NCBI RefSeq assembly: GCF_025717675.1
Contig: NZ_JAJIRT010000010.1
Location: 62,001-126,000 of the forward strand
Direction: 5' to 3'
Length of the DNA: 64,000 nucleotides
Source of the DNA: Paucibacter sp. DJ2R-2
GTDB lineage: Bacteria > Pseudomonadota > Gammaproteobacteria > Burkholderiales > Burkholderiaceae_C
Positions 2,853-40,480 of the stretch are shown one piece after another (the stretch's first letter is position 1; every line of letters begins with the position of its first letter). A program made the translations under genes and the position numbers. The notes beneath the pieces are model-generated. The model had not been told where the DNA came from. It saw only the letters and a list, made by a program, of their open reading frames with translations, and searched no databases.

Positions 2853-2964
2853 GGGCGGGATCAGGTCTCAGCAGCAATGGTGCCATGCTCGCACGGTCAT
2901 GTCCTTGATGCCCATCAAGACAAACACGGGTGGGCCACTGGATGGCGCCCGCGCTGCACTCTGC

Positions 2965-5559: not shown

Positions 5560-5570
5560 GGCGGCGCCTC

Positions 5571-6383: not shown

Positions 6384-6465
6384 GGGCAGGGATTTTACGT
6401 GCTGCGCCGGCGCCTTGCCCTGCCTACCATCGCGGCTTTGCCCGCGGCGACGGGAGGGGGCAGCG

Positions 6466-9923: not shown

Positions 9924-12900
9924 ATGTGGTTCACCCGCGTTTCCATCCAGAACCCCGTCATGGCCGTCATGGTCATGCTGGCCTTTGTCGTGCTGGGCTT
10001 GTTCAGCTACCAGCGCCTGTCGGTCGATCAGTTTCCCAATATCGACTTCCCCACCGTGGTGGTGCAGATGGACTATCCGGGCGCTTCGCCCGAGATTGTC
10101 GAGAGCGAAGTCACCAAGAAGGTGGAGGAGGCCGTCAACACGGTGGCCGGCATCAATGCCCTGACTTCGCGTTCCTACGAGGGCAGCTCGGTGGTCATCA
10201 TCGAGTTCAACCTCGATGTCGACGGCCGCAAGGCCGCCGAGGATGTGCGAGAGAAAGTGGCGCTGATGCGGCCGAATCTGCGCGATGAGGTCAAGGACCC
10301 GCGCATCTCGCGCTTCGACCCGCAGAGCACGCCCATCTTCAACGTCGCCATCCTCTCGGAAGACGGCAAGAAGAGCACGCAAGAGCTGACCACCTGGGCC
10401 ACCCAGGTGCTGCAAAAGCGCCTGGAGAATGTGCGCGGCGTGGGCTCGGTCAGCGTGGTGGGCGGCCTGCAGCGTCAGATCCAGCTGCAGCTGCGCCCGC
10501 AGGCCATGGAAGCGCTGGGCATCACGGTGGATCAGGTGCTGGCCGCCGTGCGAAGCGAGAACCAGGAACTGCCCATGGGCAATCTGCGCTCGCTCGAGCA
10601 AGAGCGGGTGGTGCAGATCAATGCCCGGCTCAAGCGGCCCGAGGACTTCCGCGACATCGTGGTGGCACGCAAGGGCGGCGCTTCGGTTAAGCTCTGGCAG
10701 GTGGCCGATGTGGTGGACGGCCCGCAGGAGGTGGAAAGTCTGGCGCTCTACAACGGCCAGCGCACGGTGCTGCTGAGCGTGCAGAAGAGCCAGGGCGAGA
10801 ACACCATCGAGGTGGTCGATGGCCTGCAGCGCGCGCTGAAAGACGCGCAAGACCTGACCCCGCCGGGCGTCAAGGTCGAGGTCAACCGCGACAACTCGCG
10901 AGCGATTCGCGTCTCGGTGGCCAATGTCAAACGCACCCTGTTCGAAGGCGCGGCGCTGACCATCCTGATCGTGTTCCTGTTCCTGAACAGCTGGCGTTCG
11001 ACCGTCATCACCGGCCTGACCCTGCCGATCGCCCTGATCGGCACGTTCTTGTTCATGTATGCCTTCGGTTTCACCATCAACAACATCACCATGATGGCGC
11101 TGAGCCTGTGCGTGGGCTTGTTGATTGACGACGCCATCGTCGTGCGCGAGAACATCGTACGCCATGTGCAGATGGGCGCCACGCCGCGCCAGGCGGCGCT
11201 CGATGGCACGGCCGAGATCGGCCTGGCGGTGCTGGCCACCACCTTGTCCATCGTCGCGGTGTTCCTGCCCATCGGCTTCATGGGCGGCATCGTCGGCAAG
11301 TTCTTTCATGAGTTCGGCATCACCATCGTCGCGGCGGTGCTGATCTCCATGTTTGTGAGCTTCACCCTGGACCCGATGCTGTCCAGCGTCTGGCATGACC
11401 CGCAGGCGCATGGCGTGCACCGCGGGCCGCCGGTGACGCTCTACGACAAGACCTTGGGTCGTGTGACCGGCGCGGTGGACCGCTTCACCAACTGGTTGTC
11501 GGCGGGCTATCAGCGCATTCTGGCCTGGTCGCTGCGCCACAAGGGCGCAACCCTGCTGATCGCGCTGGCGACCTTCTTGTCCAGCTTTGTGCTGCTGGCC
11601 GGGGTGGGCAAGGAGTTCGTGCCCAAGGCCGACCTGTCGGAGACGCAGATCAATTTCTACACGCCCGTGGGCTCGGCCCTGGAGGTGACCGAGGCGCGCG
11701 CCAAGCAGATCGACGCCTTGCTGCGCGAGCTGCCCGAGGTGCGCTACACCGTGGCCACCATCAACAGCGGCTTTGCTGCCGGCAAGATTTACGGTGCCAT
11801 CTACGTGCGCCTGGTGGACCGCAAGGATCGCCAGCGCAGCGTGGCCGATCTGGCTGAACCGATGCGCCAGCGCCTGGCCACCGTGCCCGGCATCACCGTC
11901 ACCAACATCGGCCAGACCGATCTGGGCGGCGGCAAGAGCTTGCAGTTCTCCATCCAGGGCAGCGACTTGGGCGAGCTGGAGCGCATCTCCAAGCAGGTGG
12001 TTGCGCGGCTGCAGAAGATCCCCGGCCTGGTGGACCTGGACACCACGCTCAAGCCCAACAAGCCGACGGTGTCGGTCGAGGTGAAGCGCGATGTGGCGGC
12101 TGATGCCGGCCTCAACGTCAATGCTCTGGCGGGCACGCTGCGCACCTTGCTGGCCGGCACCACCGTGGGCAACTGGCGCGCCTCGGACGGTGAGAACTAC
12201 GATGTGCTGGTGCGCTTAGGTCCACAAAGTCGCGACTCTCTGACTGACTTGCAGCGCATGCCCATCAATCTGCCGGCTGCCGCCGACGGCATGCCGCGGG
12301 TGATGGCCCTGTCTCAGCTGGCCGATGTGAAGGCCTCGACCGGGCCCAACCAGATCAACCGCCGCGATATGGCGCGCGAGATCACCATCGACGCCAACGC
12401 CCTGGGTCGAAGCTCGGGTGAGGTGTCGGCCGACATCAAGAAGGTGTTGGACGAGACCGCCTTCCCGCCTGGTTACCGCTACAGCTTCGGCGGCTCGACC
12501 AAGAATATGAACGAGTCCTTCCAGTACGCCGTGGGCGCACTGGGCCTGGCCGTGGTCTTCATCTACATGATCTTGGCCAGCCAGTTCAAGAGCTTCTTGC
12601 AGCCGCTGGCGCTGATGAGCTCGCTGCCGCTGACCCTGGTGGGTGTGTTCCTGGCGCTGCTCTTGTTCCGCTCCACGCTCAATATGTTCAGCGTCATCGG
12701 CATCGTCATGTTGATGGGTCTGGTGACCAAGAACGCCATTCTTTTGATCGACTTCGCCATCCGCTCGCGGGCCGGCCAGCATGGCAACGGGGTGGATCAG
12801 GAACCCATGGAGCGCGAGGCGGCCTTGTTGCATGCGGCCCATGTGCGGCTGCGGCCGATTCTGATGACCACCCTGGCCATGGTCTTCGGCATGGTGCCCC

Positions 12901-13112
12901 TGGCTTTTGCTCTGAGCGAGGGCTCCGAGCAGCGCGCGCCCATGGGGCAGGCGGTGATTGGCGGGGTGATCACCTCCTCGCTGTTGACCTTGGTGGTGGT
13001 GCCGGTGATCTATTGCTATCTGGACGATCTGGCCGCCTGGGCGAAACGGCGCTGGACAGGAAATAGAATTCCCGCTGTACCGGGCATGGCCGACGCCGCC
13101 GCCGCGGATTGA
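9924..13112 (+). CDS. efflux RND transporter permease (HAE1/AcrB family)
   Basis: Inner-membrane proton-driven pump subunit of 1062 residues, with 12 predicted helices and two large periplasmic loops. The N-terminus (FTRVSIQNPVMAVMVMLAFV) and the double aspartate of helix 4 (GLLIDDAIVVREN, about residues 402-403) are canonical, as is the Lys of helix 10 in TKNAILLIDFA. The DD pair and this Lys carry the proton relay, so the pump should work. It resembles MdtB/MdtC-type pumps more than metal pumps: the heavy-metal helix-4 motif is absent. It forms a pair with the adaptor upstream; the TolC gene 1.1 kb downstream may provide the outer-membrane channel. Confidence 0.95.
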   Translation: MWFTRVSIQNPVMAVMVMLAFVVLGLFSYQRLSVDQFPNIDFPTVVVQMDYPGASPEIVESEVTKKVEEAVNTVAGINALTSRSYEGSSVVIIEFNLDVDGRKAAEDVREKVALMRPNLRDEVKDPRISRFDPQSTPIFNVAILSEDGKKSTQELTTWATQVLQKRLENVRGVGSVSVVGGLQRQIQLQLRPQAMEALGITVDQVLAAVRSENQELPMGNLRSLEQERVVQINARLKRPEDFRDIVVARKGGASVKLWQVADVVDGPQEVESLALYNGQRTVLLSVQKSQGENTIEVVDGLQRALKDAQDLTPPGVKVEVNRDNSRAIRVSVANVKRTLFEGAALTILIVFLFLNSWRSTVITGLTLPIALIGTFLFMYAFGFTINNITMMALSLCVGLLIDDAIVVRENIVRHVQMGATPRQAALDGTAEIGLAVLATTLSIVAVFLPIGFMGGIVGKFFHEFGITIVAAVLISMFVSFTLDPMLSSVWHDPQAHGVHRGPPVTLYDKTLGRVTGAVDRFTNWLSAGYQRILAWSLRHKGATLLIALATFLSSFVLLAGVGKEFVPKADLSETQINFYTPVGSALEVTEARAKQIDALLRELPEVRYTVATINSGFAAGKIYGAIYVRLVDRKDRQRSVADLAEPMRQRLATVPGITVTNIGQTDLGGGKSLQFSIQGSDLGELERISKQVVARLQKIPGLVDLDTTLKPNKPTVSVEVKRDVAADAGLNVNALAGTLRTLLAGTTVGNWRASDGENYDVLVRLGPQSRDSLTDLQRMPINLPAAADGMPRVMALSQLADVKASTGPNQINRRDMAREITIDANALGRSSGEVSADIKKVLDETAFPPGYRYSFGGSTKNMNESFQYAVGALGLAVVFIYMILASQFKSFLQPLALMSSLPLTLVGVFLALLLFRSTLNMFSVIGIVMLMGLVTKNAILLIDFAIRSRAGQHGNGVDQEPMEREAALLHAAHVRLRPILMTTLAMVFGMVPLAFALSEGSEQRAPMGQAVIGGVITSSLLTLVVVPVIYCYLDDLAAWAKRRWTGNRIPAVPGMADAAAAD

Positions 13113-22204: not shown

Positions 22205-22759
22205 TCAGACGCGCTTGCGGTACTCGTGCGTGCGGGTGTCGATTTCGATCTTGTCGCCCTGGGCCACGAAGATGGGCACGGGGATTTCGAAGCCGGTGGA
22301 GATCTTGGCGGGCTTCAGGACCTTGCCCGAGGTGTCACCCTTGACTGCTGGCTCGGTCCAGGTCACTTCACGCACCAGAGAGGTGGGCAGTTCAACCGAG
22401 ATGGCCTTGCCGTCGTAGAACACCACTTCCACGGGCATGGAGTCTTCCAGGTAGGACAGGGCGTCGCCCATGTTCTCGGCTTCGACTTCGAACTGGTTGT
22501 ACTCGGTGTCCATGAACACATACATCGGGTCAGCGAAGTAGGTGTAGGTGCAGTCGCGCTTTTCCAGGATGACCTGGTCCATCTTGTCGTCGGCCTTGAA
22601 CACGACTTCGGTGCCCGAGTTGTTCAGCAGGCTCTTCAGCTTCATGCGCACGGTGGCTGCATTGCGGCCGCCGCGGCTGTATTCGGTCTTCAGCACGACC
22701 ATCGGGTCTTTACCGTGCATGATCACGTTGCCGGCGCGGATTTCTTGAGCAATCTTCAT
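22205..22759 (-). CDS. efp: elongation factor P (Arg32 type)
   Basis: Translation factor of 184 residues that rescues ribosomes stalled at polyproline stretches. It starts [19 protein letters not shown] and has the three-barrel length of the family. The tip of domain I reads SRGGRNAA with Arg at position 32, the residue rhamnosylated in the EarP-dependent class, instead of the Lys used by the EpmA class. The earP gene lies directly upstream on the same strand, 223 bp away. The start at 22759 is set by homology; the longer frame to 22891 adds unrelated sequence. Good agreement between residue and neighbour makes the modification route nearly certain. Confidence 0.97.
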
Positions 22760-22982
22760 GAGTGTTCCGATTTGGAGAGAAGTTCTTCGGGATGGCCCGG
22801 CGTCTTGATCACGCGCTATTGCTTCGGGGCCCAGGCCATTGCTTGATTGATGTGGGTCAGACGACCCGTGGGTCCGCTGAACTTCGGTCAAACAAGCAGG
22901 GTCTGCTGTCTTGAGATGCCAGCCTTTGACGGCTTCATCGAGGTGTCGTGCCCGGTCTTGCGGCGCAACAAAGCCCTATATT

Positions 22983-24050
22983 TTAGCTTGATTTGTGAGC
23001 CAGGCCGAGCAGTTGGCTGCACAAGTCCTGCTGGGGCGCCAATTGAGCACGCCAGTGCAGGGCCTGTGCAATGGCGGTTTCTGCGGCCGGCAGCCGCAAG
23101 TGGCCGGCCTCCAGCTCGTTCCAGCGGCGCCAGCAACTGCGCGTCGCCGCGGCCAGCTCGGCCCTTGCGTCTTGCAGATACAGGTCCAGGAAGGCGTTCA
23201 ACTTGGGGCCGTGGGCGCCGTCGTCCTGGCGGTAGATCTGCCAGACAAAAGGCTTGCCCGCCCATTGGGCGCGCACAAACGAGTCTTCCCCGCGCACGAA
23301 GTTGAGGTCGGCTGCCCAGAGCAGGGCGTCGAACTCGTCTTGGCTGACGAAGGGCAGGGCATGCAGGCGCAGCGGGGCAGGCAGCTCGCGCTGCAGCAAT
23401 TCCGCTTGAACAGCGCCGGGACAAACCAGCAAGAGGGTCGGCTGTTCGGCCAGGGTGGCGAGTAAATCGGGGAGGCGCGGGTTGGGGTAGGCGAACAGGC
23501 TGACGATGCGCTCGCCCGTCCGGCGCTGCAGGCCCAGGGCAGCCAACCAGGCGCTGGCGTCGAATTGGCTTTGTGCTTTCAGCAAGCCGGGCTCGCGCAG
23601 CAAGCCGCCGGTGCGCGGGCTGAAGCCTGGGTAGAAGAAGCGCTTGCCCAGGCCGCGTCCGGGGCCGCTGAACTGCGGTGAACTCAGGCCGTGGCTGCGC
23701 TCGACATAGGCTTCGGCGCTCAAGTACTCCAGATTCAGCCACAGGGGCGCCTTGGCGCGCGCGGCCATGCGTGCGACGAAAGCTGGAGGCAGCTCGCAAC
23801 CGAAAGTTTCGATCACCACATCGCCAGCCTCGGCTTCTGTTTCACTGGATGGCCAGTCGTGGACCGTGATGCCGGGCGGCCAGCCCCTGGGCGCCATCCA
23901 GCGCAGCGGCGTTGCGTCGTCGATCCACAGGCGCACGCGCTGCCCGCGCGCCGCCAGGTCGCGGGCCAGGCGCCAGCTGACACCGACATCGCCGAAGTTG
24001 TCGATCACACGGCAGAACAGATCCCACACCAAGCTCGGACTCAGACTCAT
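22983..24050 (-). CDS. earP: EF-P arginine rhamnosyltransferase
   Basis: Glycosyltransferase of 355 residues that transfers rhamnose from dTDP-rhamnose to Arg32 of EF-P. The N-terminal EF-P-binding region [20 protein letters not shown] holds the conserved Asp residues D17 and D21, and the nucleotide-sugar site [20 protein letters not shown] holds the conserved R-G-E-D-S; a further family block is [17 protein letters not shown] fold, cytoplasmic. The start at 24050 is chosen by family length; the frame to 24125 would overlap uvrC. It is divergent from uvrC (24 bp between start codons) and upstream of its own substrate gene efp. Confidence 0.95.
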
Positions 24051-24074
24051 GCCGGGATTATCGAGGCGGGCACA

Positions 24075-26144
24075 ATGCGGGCCATGCCAGTGCCTGACTC
24101 CAAGAACCTGCCCGATATCCAGCAAGAGACGGATGCCGCCTCAGCGACGCCGGACGCCCGCGCCCTTGGTGAGCAGGCCCAGACCCAGTGGGCGGCCGAG
24201 CGTCGCATCGTCGAGGAGGCCGAGGCCCAGCGGGTGCAGCAGGTCGAACAGGTGGCGCGTGAGCAGCGCGAGCGCATCCTGCAAGAGGTGGCCGCCTTGC
24301 CCGGGCTGCCAGGCGTCTATCGCTACTTCGATGCCCAGGATCAGGTGCTTTATGTCGGCAAGGCCAAGCATCTGAAAAAGCGTGTCTCCAGCTATTTCCA
24401 GAAGGACCATGGCGGCACGCGCATCGGCATGATGGTGGCGCGCATCGCCCGCCTGGAGACGACGGTGGTGCGCACCGAGTCCGAGGCGCTGCTGCTGGAA
24501 AACAATCTGATCAAGGCGCTGAACCCCAAGTTCAACATCTTGTTCCGCGACGACAAGAGCTACCCCTACCTCAAGCTCAGCGGCCATGAATTCCCGCGCA
24601 TCAGCTACTACCGCGGCGCGGTGGACCGGCGCCATCGCTATTTCGGCCCCTTCCCGAGCGGCTGGGCGGTCAAGGAGTCGATCCAGCTGATCCAGAAGGT
24701 CTTCAAGCTGCGCACCTGTGAGGACACGGTCTTCAACAACCGTTCACGACCCTGCCTGCTGTACCAGATCCGCCGCTGCTCCGGCCCTTGCGTGCCGGAA
24801 GGGCAGGGTGCCGATTACGGTCGCAACGTCAGCAACGCCGAACGCTTTTTGCTGGGCGAGACGCAAGAGGTGATGGACGGTCTGCAGGCACAGATGATGG
24901 CCTATTCGGATGCCTTGCAGTTTGAACTGGCGGCCGAGGTGCGCAACCAGATCCAGGCTCTGGCGCGCGTGTTGCAGCAGCAGTCGGTGGACGAGAACAG
25001 CGCCACCGGCCGTGACCGCGATGTCGACATCCTGGCAGCCAAGGTGCAAGGCGGCCGCGCCTGCGTCAACCTCGCCATGGTGCGCGGTGGCCGTCATTTG
25101 GGAGACCGCGCCTTCTTTCCCAAACATGTCGAGGAGGCGACTGCCGTTTCCCTGGGTGATGACGAGCAGCTCAGTGCCTTTTCCCCCGAGCGCCTGGTGC
25201 TGGAGGCCTTCATGGCTCAGCATTACCTCGATGCCCATGTGCCCTCGCTGATCGTGCTCAGCGAGTTGGTGGACGAGACGCTTTCTGAGGCCTTGAGCGA
25301 GCAGGCCGGCTACAAGGTCACCACGCAATCCCAGCCGCGCGGCCAGCGCCGCATCTGGCAGGAGATGTGCGTCAAGGGCGCCGAACTGGCCTTGGCGCGC
25401 CTGCTAGCCGAAGAGGGCTCGCAGCAGGCGCGTACCCGCGCCCTGGTCGATGCGCTGGAGTTGTCAGTGCAGGAGTTGGATGCTTTCCGCATCGAGTGCT
25501 TCGACATCAGCCATACCGCGGGCGAGGCGACCATGGCCTCCTGCGTGGTGTTTGATGCGCACCAGATGCAGAGCAGCCAGTACCGGCGCTACAGCATCGA
25601 GGGCATCACTGGCGGCGACGACTACGCCGCCATGCGTCAGGTGCTGACCCGGCGCTACAGCAAGCTGGCCGAGGCCGCGCAGCTGGGCACCGGGCGCCTG
25701 CCCGATCTGGTGCTGGTGGATGGCGGCCGCGGCCAGGTGGCTATGGCGCGCGAGGTCTTCGAGGAGCTGGGGCTGGATCTGTCCTTGATCGTCGGCGTAG
25801 AGAAGGGCGAGGGGCGCAAGGTCGGCCTCGAGGAGTTGGTGTTCGCCGACGGCCGGCCCAAGGTCTATTTGGGGCGTGACTCGGCCGCGCTGATGTTGGT
25901 GGCGCAGATCCGAGACGAGGCCCACCGCTTTGCCATCACCGGCATGCGTGCCAAGCGGGCCGCGGTGCGCACCGGAGGCTCTAAGCTTGAGGATGTGGCC
26001 GGTATTGGCCCGAAGAAGCGCGCTCAACTTTTGCAGCGCTTCGGTGGAGTGCGCGGCGTGGCCGCCGCGAGTGTGGAAGAGATTGCCAGCGTCAAGGGCG
26101 TTTCCAAGGAACTGGCAGAGGAGATCTATCGTGTCTTGCACTGA
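24075..26144 (+). CDS. uvrC: excinuclease ABC subunit C
   Basis: Nucleotide excision repair endonuclease making both incisions around lesions bound by UvrB. Of 689 residues, the order is: GIY-YIG nuclease ([20 protein letters not shown] onward, about 75-155), Cys cluster region [16 protein letters not shown] domain ([17 protein letters not shown]), RNase H-like nuclease ([20 protein letters not shown]) and two helix-hairpin-helix motifs ([21 protein letters not shown]). The N-terminus carries about 70 extra residues rich in Glu, Gln and Arg before the GIY domain, longer than in most UvrC proteins. ATG at 24075 has a GAGG site eight bases upstream; 24084 is an alternative. Confidence 0.96.
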
Positions 26145-30888: not shown

Positions 30889-31596
30889 TCAGGCTTGCCG
30901 GCGCGCGGCCCAGCGGCGCAGCAGCCAGGCGGCGACGCCCAGCAGGATCAGGCCGGCCAGCAAGCGCCAGGCATCGCTGGCCTGGGCGCTCTCAAGGGCA
31001 TGCATCAACTGGTCCATAAAGAAGGCCAGAGCCAAGGTCGCCGGCAACATGCCCAGCAAGGTGCCGAGCATCATGTCTCTCAGGCGTATGTGGCTGGCTC
31101 CTGCCACCATATTGACGATGGCGAAGGGCGCAATCGGCAACCAGCGGATCAAGATCACGGCGATCAGGCCGCGCCGGGCCAAGGCCTGGCTCAGTTGTTG
31201 AAGGCGCGGGCCGGCCAGTGTTTTCAGAGCCGCATGACCCAGGCAGTGGCCGATGCCATGGCTCAAGCCGGCGGCCGCAACACCGGCCGCCAAGGTGCAC
31301 ATGAGCCCCTGGGTCGGGCCCAGGGCGGCCAGGGCGAGTACGGTGAGCAGCATCAGCGGCACGGCCAGCACCAGGGCGAGGGTCATCAAAGCAGCCATTG
31401 CCCAGGGCCCCAGCCACTGGCCCAGGCGCTGCAGCTTTGGCAGCAGCTGCGCCGGATCGATTTCGCTGCGCCAGGGCGAATAGGCCCAGCCCAGACTCAG
31501 ACCCAGCAGCAGCAACAGAAGCAGGGCCAGGCCGGCCGCACGCAGGCGCAGGCGCCGCTTGGCAGCGGCTTGCGTCGGTTCTTCCTTTTGCTTCAT
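30889..31596 (-). CDS. TVP38/TMEM64 (VTT domain) family membrane protein
   Basis: A 235-residue inner-membrane protein with about six hydrophobic segments. The VTT/DedA-like core is visible in LAALGPTQGLMCTLAAGV, the re-entrant region with LIRWLPIAPFAIVNMVAG, and the basic, polar GASHIRLRDMMLGTLLGM. Relatives in this superfamily are linked to lipid translocation and envelope homeostasis. Its ATG overlaps the NRPS stop codon by four bases, so it is translated from the same message; with the patatin gene it closes a three-gene operon. A role in moving a lipid or lipid-like product is inference from that context. Confidence 0.85.
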   Translation of the reverse strand: MKQKEEPTQAAAKRRLRLRAAGLALLLLLLLGLSLGWAYSPWRSEIDPAQLLPKLQRLGQWLGPWAMAALMTLALVLAVPLMLLTVLALAALGPTQGLMCTLAAGVAAAGLSHGIGHCLGHAALKTLAGPRLQQLSQALARRGLIAVILIRWLPIAPFAIVNMVAGASHIRLRDMMLGTLLGMLPATLALAFFMDQLMHALESAQASDAWRLLAGLILLGVAAWLLRRWAARRQA

Positions 31597-34500
31597 GCCT
31601 GAGTCCCTGTCTTCGCTCGCATGAAGCTGAGCAGCTCGTCAGCCAGGGTGTCGACGTGGCTCGAATCGAAGATGGAACCATGCGTACCGGCCACCTGGCG
31701 GCTGTGCAGCTCGGGCAGCAGCCGCCCCCAAGCCTGGAACAGCAGCTTGTGCCATTTGGCCAGACCGGCCGATTGCAGCAGCAAGACCGGGCCCGAAAAT
31801 GCCTGACAGCGATGGCCGCGCAGGGCCTGGACCTGAAGCACCAGGCCCGGGTCGCTGAACATGGCGCCGAGGCGTCGGCCATTGAGGCTCAGGTCCTGGA
31901 CGTGGAGCTTGCGCACCAGCCAGCCCAGCGTTCGCCAGGGGGTGGTGCCGCCGAACACGGCTTCGGGGTGGATGGTGTCCAGCAGCAGCAAGCCGGCCGG
32001 CGCCTGGCCGCGTTGCTGCAGCTCCACTGCTGCTGCCAAGGCCGTGACACCTCCGACCGAGAAGCCGGCCAGCCAGGCCGACGAGTCGCCCTCGGCGGCC
32101 ATGGCATCGGCATACATCGCTGCCAAGGCGCCAATGCTCAGCGGCTCTTCCTGAAGCGGCGGCTGCAACATGAAGACGTCCACTTCGCCGGCCAGGGCCT
32201 GCGCCAACTGCTGCAGCCGCAGCACATCGCCATGACCGGATGCGGCGACGAAGAGTCGCTGCGCGCCCGACTGCACATGGCTCAGCTTTTGCAATACGCC
32301 CGGCGGCACAAAGGGCCGAGTCAAGGCCCGTGCCAGAGCCGCGATGCTCGGGTGGTCTTGCATCAGTTGCAAGGGCAGGCGTTGACCGAGTTCATCCTCC
32401 AGCGTGGCCAGTACGCCGAGGGCGGCCAGAGAGTCACCACCGAGCGCAAAGAAGTCGGCGTCCAGGTCGATTTGGCCGGTCTGGCCAGTCTGGCCGTGTG
32501 CGATCTGGCCGGCTCGGGCGGCGGCCGGCAGGGCTTCACTCCAGAGTTCGAGCAGCCTGTGCTCCAAGGCATTTCTGGGCGCTCGTGGCGGGCCGCTGGT
32601 CGCAGGGGCCAGAGAGTCTGCAGACGACCCCAGCGGCGCGGGCGACGGTAAACCGCCCAGCTGCACCTTGCCATGGGGCCCGAGCGGCAACTCGGCCAGC
32701 AGGCTGAAGGAGCTCGGGCGCATGACCTCGGGCAGACTCTGGCGCAAGCCCGCTTGCAATCGTGGCAGGTCCGCTTCGCTCAGCCCAGCGCCGGCGAGCC
32801 AGGCATGCAGGCGCGGCGGCTGTGCCTCGGCGAGCAGTTGTACGGCCGCTTGTTGCACCAGGGGCAGGCGCAGGCAGGCAGCTTCGACATCGCCGAGTTC
32901 GATGCGCTGGCCGCGCAGCTTGACCTGACGATCCAGGCGGCCGTTGAAATGCAGCAGCCCGGCGGCGTCCAGCCAGCCGCGATCGCCGCTGCGGTAAAGC
33001 CGAGCTGGGGGCTGCCCCGGCGCGCTGGGCACCCAGGGGTCGGGCACAAAGGCGCGAGCGTCCAGCTCGGGCCGCCCGAGGTAGCCGCGCGCCAGACCGC
33101 CGCCGCCGATATAGATCTCGCCGCTGTAGCCGAAGGGCAGGGGCTGCATGGTCTCGTCCAGCACATAGATGCGGACGTCGTCGATGGGGCGGCCCAAGGG
33201 GATCTTCGTGATTTCGTTCTGCCCCGTGTCTGCCCCGATTTCGGCAGGGGCCGGCGGGCAGGGCCAGGCGCTGGCAAAGATGCAGGCTTCGGTCGGGCCG
33301 TAGAAGTTGTAGAGCTGGGCGCTGCTCAAGGCTTGAAAGCGCCGCACCAGGGCCGGAGGCAGCAGCTCCCCGCCGCAGCAGGCGACCCGAAGACTAGGTG
33401 CCGGCTGGCCTTGGCGGCGCGCCAGCGCCCAGGCGTCCACCAGACCGGCCAGGGTGCTGGGCACGAAGGCGCCGAAGCTGGCACCGTGCTTCTGGATCAG
33501 CTCGGCCAGGCGGCGCGGATGCACGCGGCCCGGCGGCGGCAGGGCGATGCTGGCGCCTTGGCTCAGCGGCAGCAGCAGCTCCACCAGGGCCGGGTCAAAG
33601 CCAAGTTGAGTGCCCTGGATGGCCCGGTCTTGCGGGCCGATGCCCCAGCTCTTGGCCAGCCAGGCCAGGCGCCGTGTCAGGGCGCCGTGCTCCATCATCA
33701 CGCCCTTGGGACGGCCGCTTGAGCCCGAGGTGAAGAGCACATAGGCCAGGTCTTCGGCGCGTGCCCCGTCCGAGGCTGCTCGGTCGTTCGAGTCCGGGAA
33801 TTCGGGCCAGGTCTGGGGCAAACGCAGGCAGCGCTGCTGCAGGCCCGGCAGTTCGCTCAACACCGACGGGCCATCGACATCGAGCAAAAGGGCCACCGCG
33901 CCGCTGTCCAGCAGCACACCGGCAAGGCGAGCCGGCGGCGCCTGCGGGTCCAAAGGCAGGAAGGCCGCGCCCGCCAGTCCAATGGCGACCAGGGCCACCA
34001 CCATTTCGGCCGAGCGTTCCATGGCCAGGGCCACGACCCGGTCGCGCCCGGCACCGAGGCGGCGCAGCTGCCGGGCCAGCGCTTCGGTGCGCGCAAGCAA
34101 CTCGGCATAACTCAGGCTTGCGACGGTGTCATGCTCATCCCAGACCAAGGCGCAGGCTTCGGGCTGCAGGCCGGCCTGATGGCGGAACTGGCTCACCCAG
34201 GTTTGCGGCGCCTCAAGCTGGGCCAGGTCCTTGTGCAGGCCGTGCAGCAGGGCCCAGCGTTCTTCGGCCGGCAGCAGTTCGATCAGGTCTAGCGCTTGTT
34301 CGGGCTGCGCGGCCAGGCTCTGGCTGAGCTGCCAGAGCCGGCGTGCCAGCAAGGCCGTTTCTTCCGCTTCGAAGCAGGCGCTGCTGGCTTCCAGTATCAG
34401 GGCCGGCGCAGCGCCGCCGTCGAATTCGCACAGCGTCATCGCCAGGGGGAAGCGGGCGCGGCCGCTGAACAGCTGGCGCGATTCCGTCAGTTGAGCCGCG

Positions 34501-35606
34501 CCAAACTGCAGGCGGTAGTCCTGGCGTTCAAAGGACAGCAGCAGCTCCAGCACCTCGCCCTGGCCGCTCAGGTGCAGGCCCGGCAGTTCATGGGCCAGCT
34601 CGCTCAAGGGGTAGCGCGCATGCCGCAGGGCCGCTTGCATCTGCGTGCCCGCTTGCTGCATCAGCGCCCCTGCCGTGCCGGCCTGGTCCAGGTCGAGCAG
34701 CAGGCATTGCAGGCCGGTGAACATGCCCGGTGTCTGGCGAAAGCGTTGGCCGCTGCGGTTCAGGCTGGGCACGCCGATCAGCACTTTGCGCTGACCGCTG
34801 AGGCGCCCGAAGTACAGGGCCATGGCGGCCAGCAGGACATTGAAGCTGCTCAGCCCCTGGGCTTTGGCGGCTTGCTCCATGCGGGCATAGGCGCTGGCAT
34901 CCAGGGGCAGATGGAAGAGCTGGGCTCTTGGCAACTCGCGTGTATCGACGCTCTGCGGCTGGGCGCGCCGCGCCACCAAAGGCTGGCGATCGCCTTGTGC
35001 CAGACCGGTCAGTTGTTGCCGCCAGAAAGCCGCGTCACGTTCGAACAAGGCCGATTGACGGTAGCGCTGCGAGTCCTCGATGAAGTCACAGTAGCGTGCG
35101 CCAGCACAGGCCTCTCTCGGCGAAGACGTGGCCCCGGGCTCCAGGCTTTGGTAGATCGTGCACCAAGCCTGCATCAGCTGGGTTGTGCCCCAACCGTCCA
35201 TCACGAGGTGGTGAAACTGGATGCTCAAGCCGTGCAGGGCGTCATGCGCGCGCAGCAGCAGGAAGCGCCAGGGCGGCCGGCCATCGAGGGCGAAGGGCTC
35301 GCCCATGCGAGCGTTCCAGCAGCGTTCCATGGCCTGCTCGGCTTCGAGGTCAGAGGCGCAGTGCAAGTCGACCCGTTCCAACTGCGCGTCCCAGGCCGGC
35401 AGCAAGCGCTGGTGACCGTGCAAATCAGGGGCCAGGCGCAGGGCATCGTGGCCGGCCACCAGCAGGCGCAAGGCCGCTTTCAGCCGGGCGACATCCAGCC
35501 GACCCCGCAGCAAGGCTCCACCACCGATATTGAGATGCGCACTGCCGGGCCAGGCGCGTTGATCGAGCCAGACCTCGCGCTGACTCAGCGACAGCGGCAG
35601 GTCCAT
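31593..35606 (-). CDS. single-module non-ribosomal peptide synthetase (C-A-T-TE)
   Basis: A 1337-residue synthetase with one complete module. Condensation domain (about 1-430) with HHLVMDG at 132-138; adenylation domain (about 450-970) with the ATP motif LFTSGSSGRPKG near 620, NFYGPTEA, YRSGDRG and a C-terminal Lys in PLGPHGKVQLGG; carrier domain with LGGDSL (Ser near 1057); type I thioesterase with GFSVGG (Ser near 1181), LLLLDTIHPE and the His in VAGTHGSIFD. All catalytic residues appear intact. Starting with a C domain and having only one carrier, it may join an external acyl or carrier-bound group to one amino acid and release it. No MbtH or phosphopantetheinyl transferase gene is near. 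ATG 35606 preferred, 35693 possible. Confidence 0.93.
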   Translation of the reverse strand: MDLPLSLSQREVWLDQRAWPGSAHLNIGGGALLRGRLDVARLKAALRLLVAGHDALRLAPDLHGHQRLLPAWDAQLERVDLHCASDLEAEQAMERCWNARMGEPFALDGRPPWRFLLLRAHDALHGLSIQFHHLVMDGWGTTQLMQAWCTIYQSLEPGATSSPREACAGARYCDFIEDSQRYRQSALFERDAAFWRQQLTGLAQGDRQPLVARRAQPQSVDTRELPRAQLFHLPLDASAYARMEQAAKAQGLSSFNVLLAAMALYFGRLSGQRKVLIGVPSLNRSGQRFRQTPGMFTGLQCLLLDLDQAGTAGALMQQAGTQMQAALRHARYPLSELAHELPGLHLSGQGEVLELLLSFERQDYRLQFGAAQLTESRQLFSGRARFPLAMTLCEFDGGAAPALILEASSACFEAEETALLARRLWQLSQSLAAQPEQALDLIELLPAEERWALLHGLHKDLAQLEAPQTWVSQFRHQAGLQPEACALVWDEHDTVASLSYAELLARTEALARQLRRLGAGRDRVVALAMERSAEMVVALVAIGLAGAAFLPLDPQAPPARLAGVLLDSGAVALLLDVDGPSVLSELPGLQQRCLRLPQTWPEFPDSNDRAASDGARAEDLAYVLFTSGSSGRPKGVMMEHGALTRRLAWLAKSWGIGPQDRAIQGTQLGFDPALVELLLPLSQGASIALPPPGRVHPRRLAELIQKHGASFGAFVPSTLAGLVDAWALARRQGQPAPSLRVACCGGELLPPALVRRFQALSSAQLYNFYGPTEACIFASAWPCPPAPAEIGADTGQNEITKIPLGRPIDDVRIYVLDETMQPLPFGYSGEIYIGGGGLARGYLGRPELDARAFVPDPWVPSAPGQPPARLYRSGDRGWLDAAGLLHFNGRLDRQVKLRGQRIELGDVEAACLRLPLVQQAAVQLLAEAQPPRLHAWLAGAGLSEADLPRLQAGLRQSLPEVMRPSSFSLLAELPLGPHGKVQLGGLPSPAPLGSSADSLAPATSGPPRAPRNALEHRLLELWSEALPAAARAGQIAHGQTGQTGQIDLDADFFALGGDSLAALGVLATLEDELGQRLPLQLMQDHPSIAALARALTRPFVPPGVLQKLSHVQSGAQRLFVAASGHGDVLRLQQLAQALAGEVDVFMLQPPLQEEPLSIGALAAMYADAMAAEGDSSAWLAGFSVGGVTALAAAVELQQRGQAPAGLLLLDTIHPEAVFGGTTPWRTLGWLVRKLHVQDLSLNGRRLGAMFSDPGLVLQVQALRGHRCQAFSGPVLLLQSAGLAKWHKLLFQAWGRLLPELHSRQVAGTHGSIFDSSHVDTLADELLSFMRAKTGTQA

Positions 35607-35650
35607 TGCTGCGCTCGCGGCGGCAGGGCCCGACGCGACCGGATCGGCGC

Positions 35651-37546
35651 TCAGATCTTGGGCTTGAGATTCAACAGCTGCTTGCGATCCCATTGTTCGA
35701 TGTGTTCCATCGCGTGGCGATAGCCCAGTTCGGCGATCTCGGCCCCTTGGGCGTAGGCCATCAGGGCGAATCCTGCCACGGGCGGTTCGAGGTAATGGTC
35801 GGCCTGCGCGCGCGCACGCTGCCGCTGCCCCAGGCTGCCGATGTGGCCGGCGCTGTAGAGGATGTCGGCAATTCCCGGCGCGGCTGGAGCGCCCGGGCGC
35901 AGCCAGCGCTTGAGCACCTGCCAATTGCCCAGGCGCGCCAGCCCGCTGTCGGCACGCAGGCTGGCGCGCACGTCGACATCGACGGCAATGATGCTGCCGT
36001 TGCCGCGGCGTCGCTCCAGAGGCGTGCCCAGGCGCACGCGCATGGCCTGCACCGGCACGTTGTCGAGGATGGCGCCGTCCACCAAGAGGGCGCCGCCCTG
36101 CAGCACGGGCGGGAACAGGCCGGCGGGCGAGTTGCTGGCCAGCACGGCGCGCCAAAGCGGGCCTTGGTCCAGGGTGCTGGTGGTGCCTTCGCTGAGATTG
36201 CAGGCGGCGGCGAAGAAGGGCAACCAGAGCTGTTCGATCAGGCGCTCGCCGAACATGCGGCGCAGGTCGCGCTCGACCCGCCGGCCGGCCACCAGGGACA
36301 CCAGCGGCAAGGTCAGGCGCTCGCCGCCGGCGGCAAAGCGGCGCGTCTGGCTCAGGATCTGCTCCAGGCTGTGGCCGCAGGCGTATTGCGCGGCGATCAG
36401 TGCCCCCATGCTGTTGCCGCCGATCAGATCCACGGGCAGCTGGCTTTCTTGCAGTGCACGCAACACGCCGAGATGAGCAAAGCCGCGCGCGCCCCCGCCG
36501 CCCAACACCAGGCCCAGAGCGCTGCCGGTCAGGAAGCGGGCCAGGCGCTGGGTGTCGCCCAAACGGGCGCGGCGCAGCGGGTAAATGCGCTCCAGGGTGC
36601 GCCCCATCAGCCACGGCGTTGGCAGCACCGGCTGAGCTTCATGGGCGTCGTGCAGCAAGACCAAATGCTGGCGCTTCAGTGCCGCGTTGCCATCGCCGGC
36701 CAACAGGGCCTGTTCAACCCGGCTGGGTGTGTGCGGGGCGTGGGCGCCACTGAGCAAGATCAGTTGATCGGCTTGGCGCAGCGCGAAGCGCGTCCAGGCC
36801 TCGGGTTCAGCGCCCAAATCATCGGCATGGCGCGCCTGATAGACGATGAAGTCAAAGCGGTCTTCCAGATGTGCCAGGGCCTCGTGCGGCAAGGCCTGAC
36901 CGTTGAGCAGCAGCTGCGGCGCTCCGCTGGCAGGGTCCCGCACTTCGCGCAGGTGGCCGCTGCGGCCCTGCAAGCTCAGGCAGCGGCACAGGTCTTCAGC
37001 CAAGGCGGTGCCGCAGCCGTCTTGATCCAGCTCCCGCTGCAGCGGCAACAGAGCAAAGGTCTGGGCCATGCGCTGCGGCACCGGTACTTCGTGCTGGGGC
37101 CGCAGGCGTTCGTACACCGCTTGGACGAAGACTTGGCAGAGCTCAGTCGGGTGGCGCTGCAGCAGGCGCTGATAGGCCTGGCGGCTCAAGACTGCCAGGC
37201 GCGAGTCGCGTACGGCGCTCAGGTCCTGGGCTCGCGCTTGCTGCAGGATCAGGCCCAACTCACCGATGCTCTGGCCGGGTTGAACTTGGTTGTAGAGCAA
37301 GCGCTGGCCTGTAGCGTCGCGCCGTGTCACGCGCAGGCCGCCGCTGATGACAAAAATGATGGTGTCGGAGGCTTCGCCTTCGCGCAGCAGCGTGGCACCG
37401 CCCTGGACCTGCTGCACCTCCATGGCCTCGGCCAGCTCCTTCAAGATCCCGGCCGGCAAGCCCCCGAACACCGGGCTGGCCTGCAGCATGGCCAGCACCT
37501 TGGCCAGGCTGGCCTCGCGGTGGATGTGTTCGGGCTGGAACTCCAT
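35651..37546 (-). CDS. cyclic-nucleotide-binding patatin-like phospholipase
   Basis: A 631-residue protein of the neuropathy-target-esterase type. The N-terminal part (about 25-145) is a cyclic-nucleotide-binding fold (FGGLPAGILKELAEAM, GEASDTIIFVISGGLRV). After a middle region (about 150-340) comes the patatin domain with the oxyanion loop GGGGARG (349-355), nucleophile S379 in GGNSMGA and catalytic D490 in VDGA, so the Ser-Asp dyad is intact. Such proteins cleave acyl chains from phospholipids or lysophospholipids at the membrane. It is the first gene of an operon with the NRPS, 44 bp downstream, and the TVP38 protein. Whether the N-terminal domain still binds cAMP or cGMP cannot be judged. 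Confidence 0.93.
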   Translation of the reverse strand: MEFQPEHIHREASLAKVLAMLQASPVFGGLPAGILKELAEAMEVQQVQGGATLLREGEASDTIIFVISGGLRVTRRDATGQRLLYNQVQPGQSIGELGLILQQARAQDLSAVRDSRLAVLSRQAYQRLLQRHPTELCQVFVQAVYERLRPQHEVPVPQRMAQTFALLPLQRELDQDGCGTALAEDLCRCLSLQGRSGHLREVRDPASGAPQLLLNGQALPHEALAHLEDRFDFIVYQARHADDLGAEPEAWTRFALRQADQLILLSGAHAPHTPSRVEQALLAGDGNAALKRQHLVLLHDAHEAQPVLPTPWLMGRTLERIYPLRRARLGDTQRLARFLTGSALGLVLGGGGARGFAHLGVLRALQESQLPVDLIGGNSMGALIAAQYACGHSLEQILSQTRRFAAGGERLTLPLVSLVAGRRVERDLRRMFGERLIEQLWLPFFAAACNLSEGTTSTLDQGPLWRAVLASNSPAGLFPPVLQGGALLVDGAILDNVPVQAMRVRLGTPLERRRGNGSIIAVDVDVRASLRADSGLARLGNWQVLKRWLRPGAPAAPGIADILYSAGHIGSLGQRQRARAQADHYLEPPVAGFALMAYAQGAEIAELGYRHAMEHIEQWDRKQLLNLKPKI

Positions 37547-37676: not shown

Positions 37677-38102
37677 TCAGTTGCTCGTGCCCATGGCACC
37701 GGCCAGGGCTTGCACCGCTTCTTCCAGCTTGGCCTTGCCCAGTGCCTTGCACTGCTCGGGCGAGGCGTTGGGGGCGGCACCAAAAGTGGTCGCGCTCTTG
37801 GCCGGCTTGAACACCAGGTCCTTGCCCTTGCGCGGCAGGACCACGGCGCGGGCGGTGATCACGCAGGTCTTTTGTGCCACATCGATGCCGCCTTCGACCT
37901 GGCTCAGGAAGCCCCAGGCCTTGGCCGGGAACAGCTTGACCGTGGCCGGTGTGATGCTCTTCAACCAAATGGCTTCGGCTGCGGCTTGATCCATCAGATT
38001 GGCGGTCGATTGGTCATCGATCACGTACTTGGCCGGAGCGGCAAAAGCGGCGGCAGCGGCGCAAGGCAGGATCAGGGCGGCGATCAGCTGGTTCAGTTTC
38101 AT
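37677..38102 (-). CDS. small secreted protein of unknown function
   Basis: A 141-residue protein with a clear signal peptide (MKLNQLIAALILPCAAAAAF, cleavage near AFA-A) and an AAGGAAA site before the ATG. The mature part is about 120 residues, without membrane segments. It has two Cys residues (in AQKTCVITA and PEQCKALGK) that could form a disulfide in the periplasm, and a conserved-looking stretch KAWGFLSQVEGGIDV. I do not recognise a family. It stands between feoB, 160 bp upstream on the same strand, and its own terminator. No iron-binding motif is visible, so a link with Feo is not supported beyond position. Confidence 0.75.
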   Translation of the reverse strand: MKLNQLIAALILPCAAAAAFAAPAKYVIDDQSTANLMDQAAAEAIWLKSITPATVKLFPAKAWGFLSQVEGGIDVAQKTCVITARAVVLPRKGKDLVFKPAKSATTFGAAPNASPEQCKALGKAKLEEAVQALAGAMGTSN

Positions 38103-38262
38103 GGGTTTCCTTCGAGACATGCTTGTTGTTGCTTTGGCAGCGCGCAGCAGCGACCTCACGCAGTGCGTGCGCAGGCCCGGCAGTGTGGGGGCAGAGTCTG
38201 GCTTTGGGCCTCAGGGTTTACACGGGATCGTTGCCAGAGAATGGTGAACACCGCCTTCGGCC

Positions 38263-40131
38263 TCAGGCAAGCAGGGCGCTGCTGATCTTGAAGGTCAGCC
38301 AGGCGGCCATATAGGCCAGACCGAAGAGATAGACCAGCATCAGCGCGGGCGTCTTGTAGCCGCCGGTCTCACGCCGGGCAGCAGCCAGGGTGGCGATGCA
38401 TTGCGGCGCAAAGACAAACCAGGCCAGCAGGGCCAGCGCCGTGGGCAAGCTCCAGCTCTGTGCGATCAGCGGACTCAAGGCCTCGGCCGCATCGGCGCCG
38501 CCGCTGGACAGGGCGTAGACCGTGCCCAGGGCGCTGATCACCACCTCGCGGGCGGCCAGGCCCGGCACCAGGGCCAGGCAGATCTGCCAGTTGAAGCCCA
38601 GGGGCTCGAACAGCGGCGCCAGACCGCGGCCCAGCATGCCGGCGACACTGTAGACGATGGCGGGCTCGCTGGCGCTTTCGGGCGCTCCGGGGAAGCTGGC
38701 CAGCAGCCAGAGCAGCACGGTCAGCACCATGATGACGCCGCCGACGCGGCGCACAAAGATCACCGCGCGCTGCCACAGTCCCAGGGCGATATTGCGCGGA
38801 TGCGGCCAGTGGTAGGCCGGCAGCTCCATCATCAGCGGCCGCACGTGCTCGCCGCTGCGCGTGAAGCGCTTGAGCAGCCAGGCCACGCACAGTGCGCCGA
38901 AGATGCCGGCCAGGTAGAGCCCGAACAGCACCAGGCCCTGCAGCTGCAAACCCCAAGCCAGTTGCCGCGCGGGTATGAAGGCGCCAATCAAGAGGGCGTA
39001 GACCGGCAGCCGGGCCGAGCAGGTCATCAGCGGCGCGATCAGGATGGTGACCCAGCGGTCGCGCGGGTTGGCGATGCTGCGCGTGGCCATGATGCCAGGG
39101 ATGGCGCAGGCAAAGCTGGACAGCAAGGGGATGAAGCTGCGGCCCGAGAGGCCGACGCTGCCCATCAAGCGATCCAGCAAAAACGCCGCGCGCGGCAGGT
39201 AGCCACTTTCTTCCAGGATCAGGATGAAGAAGAACAGGATCAGGATCTGCGGCAGGAAGACCAGCACGCCGCCCACGCCGGCGATCAGCCCGTCCACCAA
39301 GAGGCTGCGCAACCAGCTTTCGGGCAGGGCGCCGCCGACCATCTCGCCCAGCGCGGCCATGCCGTCCTTGATCAGATCCATGGGCCCGGTGGCCCAGGCA
39401 AACACGGCCTGGAAGAGCAGGAAGAGCACGGCCGCCAGGATCAGTGGGCCGGCCACCGGATGCAGCAGCACGCGGTCGAGGCGGTCGCTGGGCAGCTCGG
39501 GCAGCTCTTGATCCAGTTGCAGTCGCTGCAGGATCTGCTTGATGCGTTCGTGGTCGCAGTCTGCCGCGGTGTCGGGCAGGGCAGCTGGCGCCCAGACCGC
39601 TTTGTCGTCCAGCAGGGCTTTCAGCTCGGTCACGCCTTCGCCCGCCGTGGCCACGGTCCGCAGCACCGGCACGCCCAGTTCGCGCGACAGCGCCTCGGCG
39701 TCGATGGTCAGGCCGCGCCGGGCGGCCAAGTCGGCCATATTCAGCGCCACCACGCAGGGCAGGCCCAGGCGCTGCACTGCCAGCACCAGGCGCAGGGTGC
39801 GGCGCAGATTGGTGGCGTCGAGCACGCAGACCACCAGGTCGGGGCGCTTCTCGCCGCGCGCACGGCCGGCCAGCACATCGCAGGTGACGCGCTCATCGGG
39901 CGAGCGCGGGTTCAGGCTGTAGGTGCCGGGCAGGTCCAGCAGGCGCAGGGCGCGGCCGGCGGCGCTGAGCAGGCGGCCCTCTTTGCGCTCAACGGTGACG
40001 CCGGCGTAGTTGGCCACTTTTTGCTGGCTGCCGGTCAGGCGGTTGAACAGGGCGGTCTTGCCGCAGTTCGGGTTGCCGACCAGGGCCAGCAGCGGCCCGC
40101 CCCGGTGCACATGGATGACTGCCTCAGCCAT
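38263..40131 (-). CDS. feoB: ferrous iron transporter FeoB
   Basis: Inner-membrane Fe(II) importer of 622 residues with an N-terminal GTPase. G motifs: GNPNCGKT (19-26), the switch I region NYAGVTVERKEG, DLPGTYSL and NMAD. A short guanine-dissociation-inhibitor-like helical region follows, then two Gate/core membrane blocks with the conserved Cys in SSFACAIPGIMATR and in LMTCSARLPVYALLIGAFIP. The C-terminal part is shorter than in E. coli FeoB (773 residues) but normal for this group. The start overlaps the feoA stop by eight bases. A Fur-type palindrome lies upstream of feoA, so repression by iron is expected. Confidence 0.96.
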   Translation of the reverse strand: MAEAVIHVHRGGPLLALVGNPNCGKTALFNRLTGSQQKVANYAGVTVERKEGRLLSAAGRALRLLDLPGTYSLNPRSPDERVTCDVLAGRARGEKRPDLVVCVLDATNLRRTLRLVLAVQRLGLPCVVALNMADLAARRGLTIDAEALSRELGVPVLRTVATAGEGVTELKALLDDKAVWAPAALPDTAADCDHERIKQILQRLQLDQELPELPSDRLDRVLLHPVAGPLILAAVLFLLFQAVFAWATGPMDLIKDGMAALGEMVGGALPESWLRSLLVDGLIAGVGGVLVFLPQILILFFFILILEESGYLPRAAFLLDRLMGSVGLSGRSFIPLLSSFACAIPGIMATRSIANPRDRWVTILIAPLMTCSARLPVYALLIGAFIPARQLAWGLQLQGLVLFGLYLAGIFGALCVAWLLKRFTRSGEHVRPLMMELPAYHWPHPRNIALGLWQRAVIFVRRVGGVIMVLTVLLWLLASFPGAPESASEPAIVYSVAGMLGRGLAPLFEPLGFNWQICLALVPGLAAREVVISALGTVYALSSGGADAAEALSPLIAQSWSLPTALALLAWFVFAPQCIATLAAARRETGGYKTPALMLVYLFGLAYMAAWLTFKISSALLA

Positions 40132-40480
40132 GCGTCGCCTCCGGGCCTTGCAGGGCCTGCACCCGGATGCAGGCCGCCTCGGCGCGGCGCAGGGCAAAGG
40201 TGGACTGGCCGATGCGCACCACCAGCGGGTCGCTGCCGGGCAGGCCGCGGCTGAGGATCTTGACCGCCTCGCCCGGTACGAAACCGATTTCGGCCAGCCA
40301 GTCGGCCCACTCGGGCGCATGGACCGGCGCTTGCACCGAGTGCACCTGCATGGCTTGACCCAGCCCGAGTTCCGCCAAGGTGTTGGGGATCCAGGGGCTG
40401 GCTGCGGCGACGTGAGCGCAAGGGGTCAGGGGAGCGCCAGCCGCGGCGGGCAGAGCGCTGGAGGCGCTGAAGTCGGTCAT
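40124..40480 (-). CDS. feoA: ferrous iron transport protein FeoA
   Basis: Small cytoplasmic SH3-like partner of FeoB, 118 residues. The FeoA fold is recognisable in LAEIGFVPGEAVKILSRGLPGSDPLVVRIG followed by FALRRAEAACIRV. About 35 extra N-terminal residues rich in Ala and Pro precede the fold, so a later start cannot be excluded. Its stop overlaps the feoB start by eight bases. The Fur-like palindrome lies about 90 bp upstream of the start codon. No FeoC gene is seen. Confidence 0.9.
   Translation of the reverse strand: MTDFSASSALPAAAGAPLTPCAHVAAASPWIPNTLAELGLGQAMQVHSVQAPVHAPEWADWLAEIGFVPGEAVKILSRGLPGSDPLVVRIGQSTFALRRAEAACIRVQALQGPEATHG

What the first reader, a model, noticed from the sequence alone, without database searches (positions are those of the whole stretch)
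30889..37546. Coupled patatin phospholipase, one-module NRPS and TVP38 protein: candidate acyl-amino-acid system
Seen: three minus-strand genes head to tail. A patatin phospholipase with an intact Ser379/Asp490 dyad and a cyclic-nucleotide-binding domain is followed after 44 bp by a complete C-A-T-TE synthetase, whose stop overlaps the start of a VTT-type membrane protein. Known: a synthetase beginning with a condensation domain and having one carrier can acylate an amino acid and release it through its thioesterase; patatins liberate fatty acids; VTT/DedA relatives are tied to lipid movement. Inference: a second-messenger-gated lipase supplies the acyl group, the NRPS makes an N-acyl amino acid or similar small lipid, and the membrane protein handles it. 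I do not know this trio as a described system.
Basis: partly seen in the sequence, partly recalled or inferred. Interest (0 to 1): 0.78.

Follow-up and report, generated by a model that had tools for sequence, protein, structure and literature searches.

The report
Operon for a probable N-acyl amino acid
Three neighbouring bacterial genes, kept together in many related species, look like a small machine that joins a fatty acid to one amino acid and handles the lipids around it; what appears to be the same gene set has been noted once before, but nobody has shown what it makes.

Summary
The genes are a cyclic-nucleotide-domain NTE-type patatin, a one-module NRPS (C-A-T-TE) and a VTT membrane protein.

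The set is a real unit. In 148 related genomes the same 19 carry patatin and NRPS orthologues. Of 43 genomes found with the patatin orthologue, 37 have all three genes in order, 4 are cut by contig ends, 1 has patatin-VTT without the NRPS, and 1 has the patatin alone.

The order is found in nine genera. The C domain is not of LCL type: it groups with initiating C domains, and its best solved relative by sequence profile is the acyl-CoA-using starter domain of RzmA. The pocket code of the A domain is nearly invariant and non-polar. No other C domain was found in the genome. The best reading is an N-acyl amino acid, or a small ester or dimer of one. What the patatin and the VTT protein do is inference.

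Tomita et al. 2023 (PMC10681181) described what appears to be the same cassette, without a product. New variant of a known kind.

The parts
35651..37546 (-). cNMP-domain NTE-type patatin, 631 aa
37151..37414 (-). cNMP-binding domain (residues 45-132)
   Evidence: Pfam PF00027
36596..36877 (-). NTE P-loop-like domain (residues 224-317)
   Evidence: Pfam PF24179
36044..36511 (-). patatin domain (residues 346-501) with Ser379 and Asp490
   Evidence: Pfam PF01734; dyad
31593..35693 (-). one-module NRPS C-A-T-TE; start probably 35693, alternatively 35606 (1337 aa)
34248..35600 (-). Condensation domain, initiating type (residues 3-453 from 35606)
32652..34187 (-). Adenylation domain (about residues 474-985), code DPVACGFIFK
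32322..32486 (-). Thiolation (carrier) domain, Ser1059
31596..32258 (-). Thioesterase domain, Ser1183/Asp1210/His1309 (Pfam match covers residues 1117-1222)
30889..31596 (-). VTT (DedA-superfamily, YdjX/YdjZ-type) membrane protein, 235 aa
37599..37631 (-). terminator-like hairpin between the upstream gene and the trio

Best explanation
The operon makes a small lipid-linked amino acid. The A domain activates one, probably non-polar, amino acid and loads it on the T domain. The initiating C domain takes a fatty acyl group, probably of medium or greater length and most likely from acyl-CoA, and N-acylates the amino acid. The TE releases it as an N-acyl amino acid, or as a small ester or dimer of one. 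The patatin, whose cNMP domain could make it answer to a cyclic nucleotide, cleaves acyl chains from phospholipid or lysophospholipid. The VTT protein moves lipid (product, fatty acid or lysophospholipid) between membrane leaflets. Shown by sequence: domain order, intact catalytic residues, initiating C type, no second C domain found in the genome, conserved pocket codes, coupled genes. Inferred: chain length, amino acid, release mode, and the roles of the patatin and the VTT protein.
For: C-domain trees: trio C domains group with 8 N-terminal C domains, including EntF, before any internal one joins (0.966, 178 rows; 100 SH-aLRT, 68 rows). Holding them with LCL is rejected, p-AU 0.000335. In the four near relatives whose upstream DNA I held, no A, T or C motif lies upstream. 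A profile of 14 trio C domains ranks the RzmA starter domain first among solved structures (190.6 bits), then PvdL 163.8, Txo2 157.6, CDA-C1 152.0, against 112.1 for EntF. The place of RzmA R148, the acyl-length gate, is T 35, A 2, S 2 in 39 rows; in RzmA shorter side chains there gave longer acyl chains (PMC7804268, passages). A code DPIACGVIFK in 36 of 39 rows; the same columns give DVWHFSLVDK for EntF. One Condensation match in the genome and two phosphopantetheinyl-transferase matches. Gene unit.
Against: No acyl-CoA synthetase or ACP gene in the operon, so the acyl route is not seen. The gate place is also small in some non-starter C domains, so chain length is only suggestive. Foldseek ranks the Txo2 C domain ahead of RzmA. 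EntF falls in the same group, so a donor other than fatty acyl-CoA is not excluded. The LCL group tested was named after the tree had been seen, which weakens that p-value. G374 keeps patatin-VTT with no NRPS and G715 the patatin alone. No product, expression or binding data exist.
Confidence: 0.6

Rival explanations
1. The NRPS makes a surface-active lipoamino acid, and patatin and VTT protein are there to protect or repair the membrane: the patatin removes lysophospholipids or acyl damage and the VTT protein evens out the leaflets. They do not feed the synthesis.
For: NTE-type domain make-up; putative scramblase-type VTT; patatin-VTT kept without the NRPS in G374 and the patatin alone in G715.
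Against: The patatin is the first gene and in most relatives overlaps the NRPS start, which fits co-synthesis as well. No toxicity or lipid data.
Confidence: 0.35
2. The TE cyclises or dimerises a hydroxyacyl amino acid into a serratamolide-like cyclic lipopeptide (biosurfactant or antifungal), so the product is not a free N-acyl amino acid.
For: SwrW has the same C-A-T-TE order (PMC7767323, passages); three strains reported with what appears to be this cassette slowed Botrytis cinerea by 43-47% against 12% for a strain without it (PMC10681181, section 14).
Against: The A code is not the serine code (serine code recalled). The antifungal link is by strain only, with no mutant; one of the three strains has other clusters. 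No hydroxylating gene in the trio.
Confidence: 0.2
3. The C domain takes an aryl or other carrier-bound starter, as EntF does, and the product is not lipid-linked.
For: EntF falls in the same group of initiating C domains.
Against: Profile scores for solved starter domains that use fatty acyl donors exceed EntF (190.6 and 152.0 against 112.1 bits); leaving EntF out of the group is not rejected (p-AU 0.355); the two partner genes are lipid-type genes.
Confidence: 0.1
4. A defence-like unit: a nucleotide-gated phospholipase that damages the cell's own membrane on a signal.
For: Weak matches of the patatin to defence effectors (PADLOC phospholipase effector 8.5e-07, TIR effector by the cNMP domain 2.6e-10; NCBIfam DS2_1_antiphage 2.1e-06 and CBASS_lipase 4.9e-04, both far under their cut-offs).
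Against: No defence match for the other two genes; the unit is kept across whole genera with an invariant amino-acid code; no cyclase gene in the trio.
Confidence: 0.03

Closest known systems
[quoted passage not shown] koreense, Pseudoduganella ginsengisoli and Noviherbaspirillum denitrificans (Tomita, Kuroda, Narihiro 2023, PMC10681181; abstract, sections 13 and 14 and passages read)
   Same: An NRPS with C, A and T domains together with a patatin-like phospholipase and a protein with a SNARE-associated domain (older name of PF09335/VTT, recalled), in Burkholderiales; the NRPSs are 51-58% identical to each other's bin 43 member; C domain nearest to syringomycin synthetase in NaPDoS (31-33%)
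   Different: The parts I read mention no cNMP domain, TE, starter-type C or lipid role; the SNARE-associated protein is read as acting on eukaryotes. The figure was not available, and I could not compare sequences because those strains were not in reach by name.
SwrW, serrawettin W1 synthetase of Serratia (PMC7767323, passages)
   Same: One module, C-A-T-TE; makes an acylated amino acid product
   Different: A code here is not the serine code; the passages read report no patatin/VTT pair
RzmA starter condensation domain (PDB 7C1H series; PMC7804268, passages)
   Same: Best solved relative of the trio C domain by profile; HHxxxDG
   Different: RzmA is a lipopeptide synthetase whose gate residue is Arg (C2 acyl); here it is T, A or S
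OaaC-type fatty-acid-amide condensation domains (PMC13142362, abstract and section 9)
   Same: Related to starter C domains; join a fatty acyl group to an amine
   Different: Free-standing, (D/H)HxxxDS motif, ACP donor; here HHxxxDG within C-A-T-TE. Not compared by sequence
NTE-type and other cNMP-patatin proteins
   Same: cNMP domain, P-loop-like domain, patatin dyad
   Different: Trio patatins are at least 42% identical to each other and at most 37% to 10 other family members, which have no VTT or trio NRPS beside them
YdjX/YdjZ proteins of the DedA superfamily (COG0398, recalled for these two)
   Same: Profile match over the length (75.0 and 65.5 bits); no acidic residue around the first re-entrant helix
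   Different: Bound to a biosynthetic operon here; activity untested

Membership tests
One-module lipo-initiating NRPS (SwrW-like) | C-A-T-TE order on one polypeptide with intact motifs | tested here: met
One-module lipo-initiating NRPS (SwrW-like) | C domain of initiating type | tested here: met
   mixed structural ranking
One-module lipo-initiating NRPS (SwrW-like) | no other NRPS needed | tested here: met
   one Condensation match in the genome
One-module lipo-initiating NRPS (SwrW-like) | fatty acyl amino acid product | not testable with these tools
   no chemistry available
SwrW itself (serratamolide synthetase) | serine-specific A domain | tested here: not met
   DPVACGFIFK against DVWHFSLVDK in EntF; that serrawettin W1 holds serine, and the serine code, are recalled
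NTE-type patatin | cNMP domain, P-loop-like domain, GXSXG and DG[AG] | tested here: met
NTE-type patatin | (lyso)phospholipase activity, control by a nucleotide | not testable with these tools
   only ligand-site residues seen
COG0398-type VTT protein | closer to YdjX/YdjZ than to DedA-type YqjA; no acidic residue in first re-entrant helix | tested here: met
   sequence and consensus; feature from PMC10127716 passages
COG0398-type VTT protein | lipid scrambling | not testable with these tools
   no assay; no meaningful solved match
Cassette of Tomita et al. 2023 | same three protein families together | tested here: met
Cassette of Tomita et al. 2023 | sequence orthology to the bin 43 genes | not tested
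   their sequences were not in reach by name

The most novel reading that the evidence does not exclude
A cyclic-nucleotide-controlled membrane-lipid signalling or remodelling operon: a second messenger switches on an NTE-type phospholipase, the released acyl chains are turned by a dedicated one-module NRPS into a conserved N-acyl amino acid, and a scramblase-type VTT protein delivers it across the membrane. It would be a lasting trait of several Burkholderiales genera and not a passing antibiotic cluster.
Probability: 0.2. Interest if true: 0.8.

Novelty: new variant of a known kind. Interest (0 to 1): 0.5.

Why it matters
If true, a large group of environmental bacteria carries an unrecognised lipid-making operon in which one enzyme of the antibiotic-making type has been tied to a phospholipase and a lipid-moving membrane protein. 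N-acyl amino acids can act as surfactants and as signals (recalled), and a phospholipase that may respond to a cyclic nucleotide would be a rare direct link from second messenger to lipid product. Three small genes in cultured, harmless strains make it easy to test, and the two natural genomes without the NRPS offer a built-in comparison. It also offers a lipid-based reading of a cassette that was earlier read as acting on eukaryotes.

Tried and rejected
Tried without result: PDB sequence search and Foldseek for the VTT protein (no meaningful match); consensus promoters near the operon (none); paper searches for patatin with NRPS (none); PADLOC (weak matches of the patatin only); neighbours of 10 other cNMP-patatin loci (no VTT relative, no NRPS apart from weak AMP-ligase hits in L159). 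The Foldseek ranking of the C model is mixed: Txo2 first, then RzmA and CDA starter structures. The trio patatins form one group against those 10, but with support of only 0.6 when rooted on one of them.

Own errors found: I first placed A-domain residue 278 one column off, giving DPVFCGFIFK; aligning EntF showed it, and the code is DPVACGFIFK. I first thought the cNMP Arg was lost; aligning other family members showed it is kept. I first took G715 for a trio cut by a contig end; it has the patatin alone.

Considered and set aside: LCL elongation, partner of another NRPS, defence unit.

Rows dropped: C-domain hits covering under 85% of the profile. Of 207 domains kept, 178 went into the first tree (10 of 39 trio), and 68 of these into the second (6 trio, 22 of 56 N-terminal, 24 of 85 internal, 11 of 11 DCL, 5 of 16 E). 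Labels come from place and motifs in the reading frame, not from known products. The LCL set was chosen from the tree. L032 and L164 are taken to be one genome (equal contig length), so 39 NRPS rows are 38 genomes and 43 patatin rows are 42; L150, whose patatin is cut by a contig end, is not in the patatin rows.

Full report
WHAT IS THERE. Three minus-strand genes: patatin 37546-35651, NRPS ending at 31593, VTT protein 31596-30889. Pfam finds cNMP_binding, NTE_Ploop and Patatin; Condensation, AMP-binding, PP-binding and Thioesterase; and VTT_dom. The NRPS start is probably the in-frame ATG at 35693, 43 nt inside the patatin gene. Of 43 loci given, this junction could be scored in 37; all 37 have an overlapping start candidate and in 35 it is the nearest one. 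The NRPS stop and the VTT start overlap by 4 nt in the window and in a number of relatives, but not in all. A terminator-like hairpin at 37631-37599 sets the trio apart from the gene upstream; the consensus scanner missed it and found no promoter-like site.

IT IS A UNIT. In 148 related genomes, the NRPS orthologue (49% identity or more over most of its length, or split over two contigs in G002) occurs in 19, and the patatin orthologue (49% or more) in the same 19. Within the genus 14 of 18 genomes have both. G013, G014, G016 and G017 have neither; they are 97, 79, 91 and 99% complete, so not all of these absences are gaps in assembly. In a draw of 399 genomes of the family 32 have the patatin orthologue, in 10 of 141 genera (E 1e-95). 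In 399 of the order 4 have it, the own genome included (E 1e-100). In 369 of the class only the own genome has it (E 1e-95). These thresholds would miss distant relatives.

In all, 43 distinct genomes with the patatin orthologue were found. In 37 the three genes stand in order on one strand: the window, L080-L096 (17), 18 of the loci L130-L150, and L164; in one of these, L150, the patatin runs off the contig. Four are cut by contig ends (G002, G185, G191, G260). One has patatin followed by VTT and no NRPS found in the genome (G374). One has the patatin alone, beside sensor-kinase-like genes, with no NRPS or VTT match found (G715; 91% complete, 410 contigs). The complete trio is seen in nine genera of two families, and two more genera (G185, G191) are cut. 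FeoB and a 160-aa protein lie upstream in the genus loci but were not matched in the loci of other genera.

THE C DOMAIN IS AN INITIATING ONE. I labelled 207 C-type domains of the fetched loci by their place in the reading frame. In a tree of 178 of them, the trio C domains group with 8 N-terminal C domains, EntF among them, with support 0.966, before any internal one joins. In a tree of 68 the same group has 100 SH-aLRT. Holding the trio with the LCL group is rejected (p-AU 0.000335), though that group was named after the tree had been seen; leaving EntF out of the trio's group is not rejected (p-AU 0.355), so EntF's place is unsure. For four of the eight relatives I could look upstream and saw no A, T or C motif. 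A profile of 14 trio C domains finds the RzmA starter domain first among solved structures (190.6 bits), then PvdL (163.8), Txo2 (157.6) and the first CDA domain (152.0); EntF has 112.1. The structure search ranks Txo2 first, then RzmA and CDA, so it does not by itself settle the type. Passages of PMC7804268 say that RzmA residue R148 sets acyl length: Arg goes with C2, and shorter side chains gave up to C8 or C10. That place is T in 35, A in 2 and S in 2 of 39 trio rows. This points to a medium or longer acyl group, but T, A or S also occur there in some internal and DCL domains.

THE AMINO ACID. The ten pocket positions read DPVACGFIFK in the window and DPIACGVIFK in 36 of 39 rows. The same columns give DVWHFSLVDK in EntF, the serine code as I recall it. 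So one amino acid seems fixed across genera, and the pocket is non-polar. I recall no exact match for this code and name no amino acid.

PATATIN AND VTT. Ser379 and Asp490 are kept in 43 of 43 aligned rows (42 genomes). The Arg of the cNMP cassette is kept in 43 of 43 and the Glu in 41 of 43; the two without it, L096 and L149, are of one genus. The cNMP domain matches PKA, PKG and CRP domains of solved structures. This allows, but does not show, control by a nucleotide. The VTT protein is of the YdjX/YdjZ type (75.0 and 65.5 bits, against 7.1 for YqjA) and has no acidic residue around its first re-entrant helix. Passages of PMC10127716 connect that feature, in subfamily COG0398, with putative phospholipid scrambling and not with undecaprenyl phosphate. 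The AlphaFold model (mean pLDDT 81.7) has short helices at 81-92 and 144-167 that fit re-entrant loops; no solved structure matched it.

HOW IT PROBABLY WORKS. Acyl-CoA and one non-polar amino acid are joined on the single module and released by the TE. The patatin and VTT protein act on the lipids around this reaction. Whether the patatin feeds acyl chains in, or protects the cell from a surface-active product, is open; G374 and G715 favour a function of its own.

WHAT IS KNOWN. Tomita et al. 2023 (PMC10681181; abstract, sections 13 and 14 and passages read) found NRPS, patatin and SNARE-associated genes together in two activated-sludge bins and three cultured strains. The three strains slowed Botrytis cinerea, but the authors say that the link to the genes is not clear. 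I did not see the figure or the sequences. Ten paper searches were made, five of them aimed at this gene set. Two of the papers listed by those five were opened (PMC10681181 and PMC4690342, the latter not relevant). One search (NRPS, patatin, SNARE together) found PMC10681181 alone. The library holds only open PubMed Central papers, so other reports may exist. One-module lipo-initiating synthetases are known from SwrW (PMC7767323, passages).

What this work adds, as far as these searches show: the starter-type assignment of the C domain, the fixed pocket codes, the breadth of conservation, the YdjX/YdjZ-type assignment of the VTT protein, and the natural loss of the NRPS in one genome.

VERDICT. 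Real, conserved, partly reported, product unknown: a new variant of a known kind.

Noticed in passing
L149 (G374), 10550-13066: Patatin and VTT genes lie 86 nt apart (if VTT starts at the ATG at 11201) with no NRPS between them and none found elsewhere in that genome, while three other genomes of the genus keep the NRPS: a natural NRPS loss that leaves the pair.
   Followed up: partly
L165 (G715), 2555-4375: A trio-type patatin (54% identity) stands alone beside sensor-kinase/response-regulator-like frames; no NRPS or VTT relative was found in that genome.
   Followed up: partly
L177 (own genome C1), 3446-7624 minus strand: A 1392-aa protein with A and T domains and hexapeptide repeats but no C domain; matches to the A domain of the query at 34-37% identity occur in other genomes of the genus too. 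It resembles poly-amino-acid synthetases (recalled).
   Followed up: partly
window 37677-38159 and 38263-40320: A small protein of about 160 aa and a FeoB-like gene (named from recall) lie upstream of the trio in the genus loci but were not matched beside the trio in other genera.
   Followed up: partly
window 22205-22891 and 22983-24125: An elongation factor P-like gene beside a gene that looks like its rhamnosyltransferase EarP (both named from recall).
   Followed up: no
L170, 4370-19068: A plasmid of Paraburkholderia sabiae has a small annotated patatin about 4 kb from a multi-module NRPS, unlike the trio in layout.
   Followed up: no
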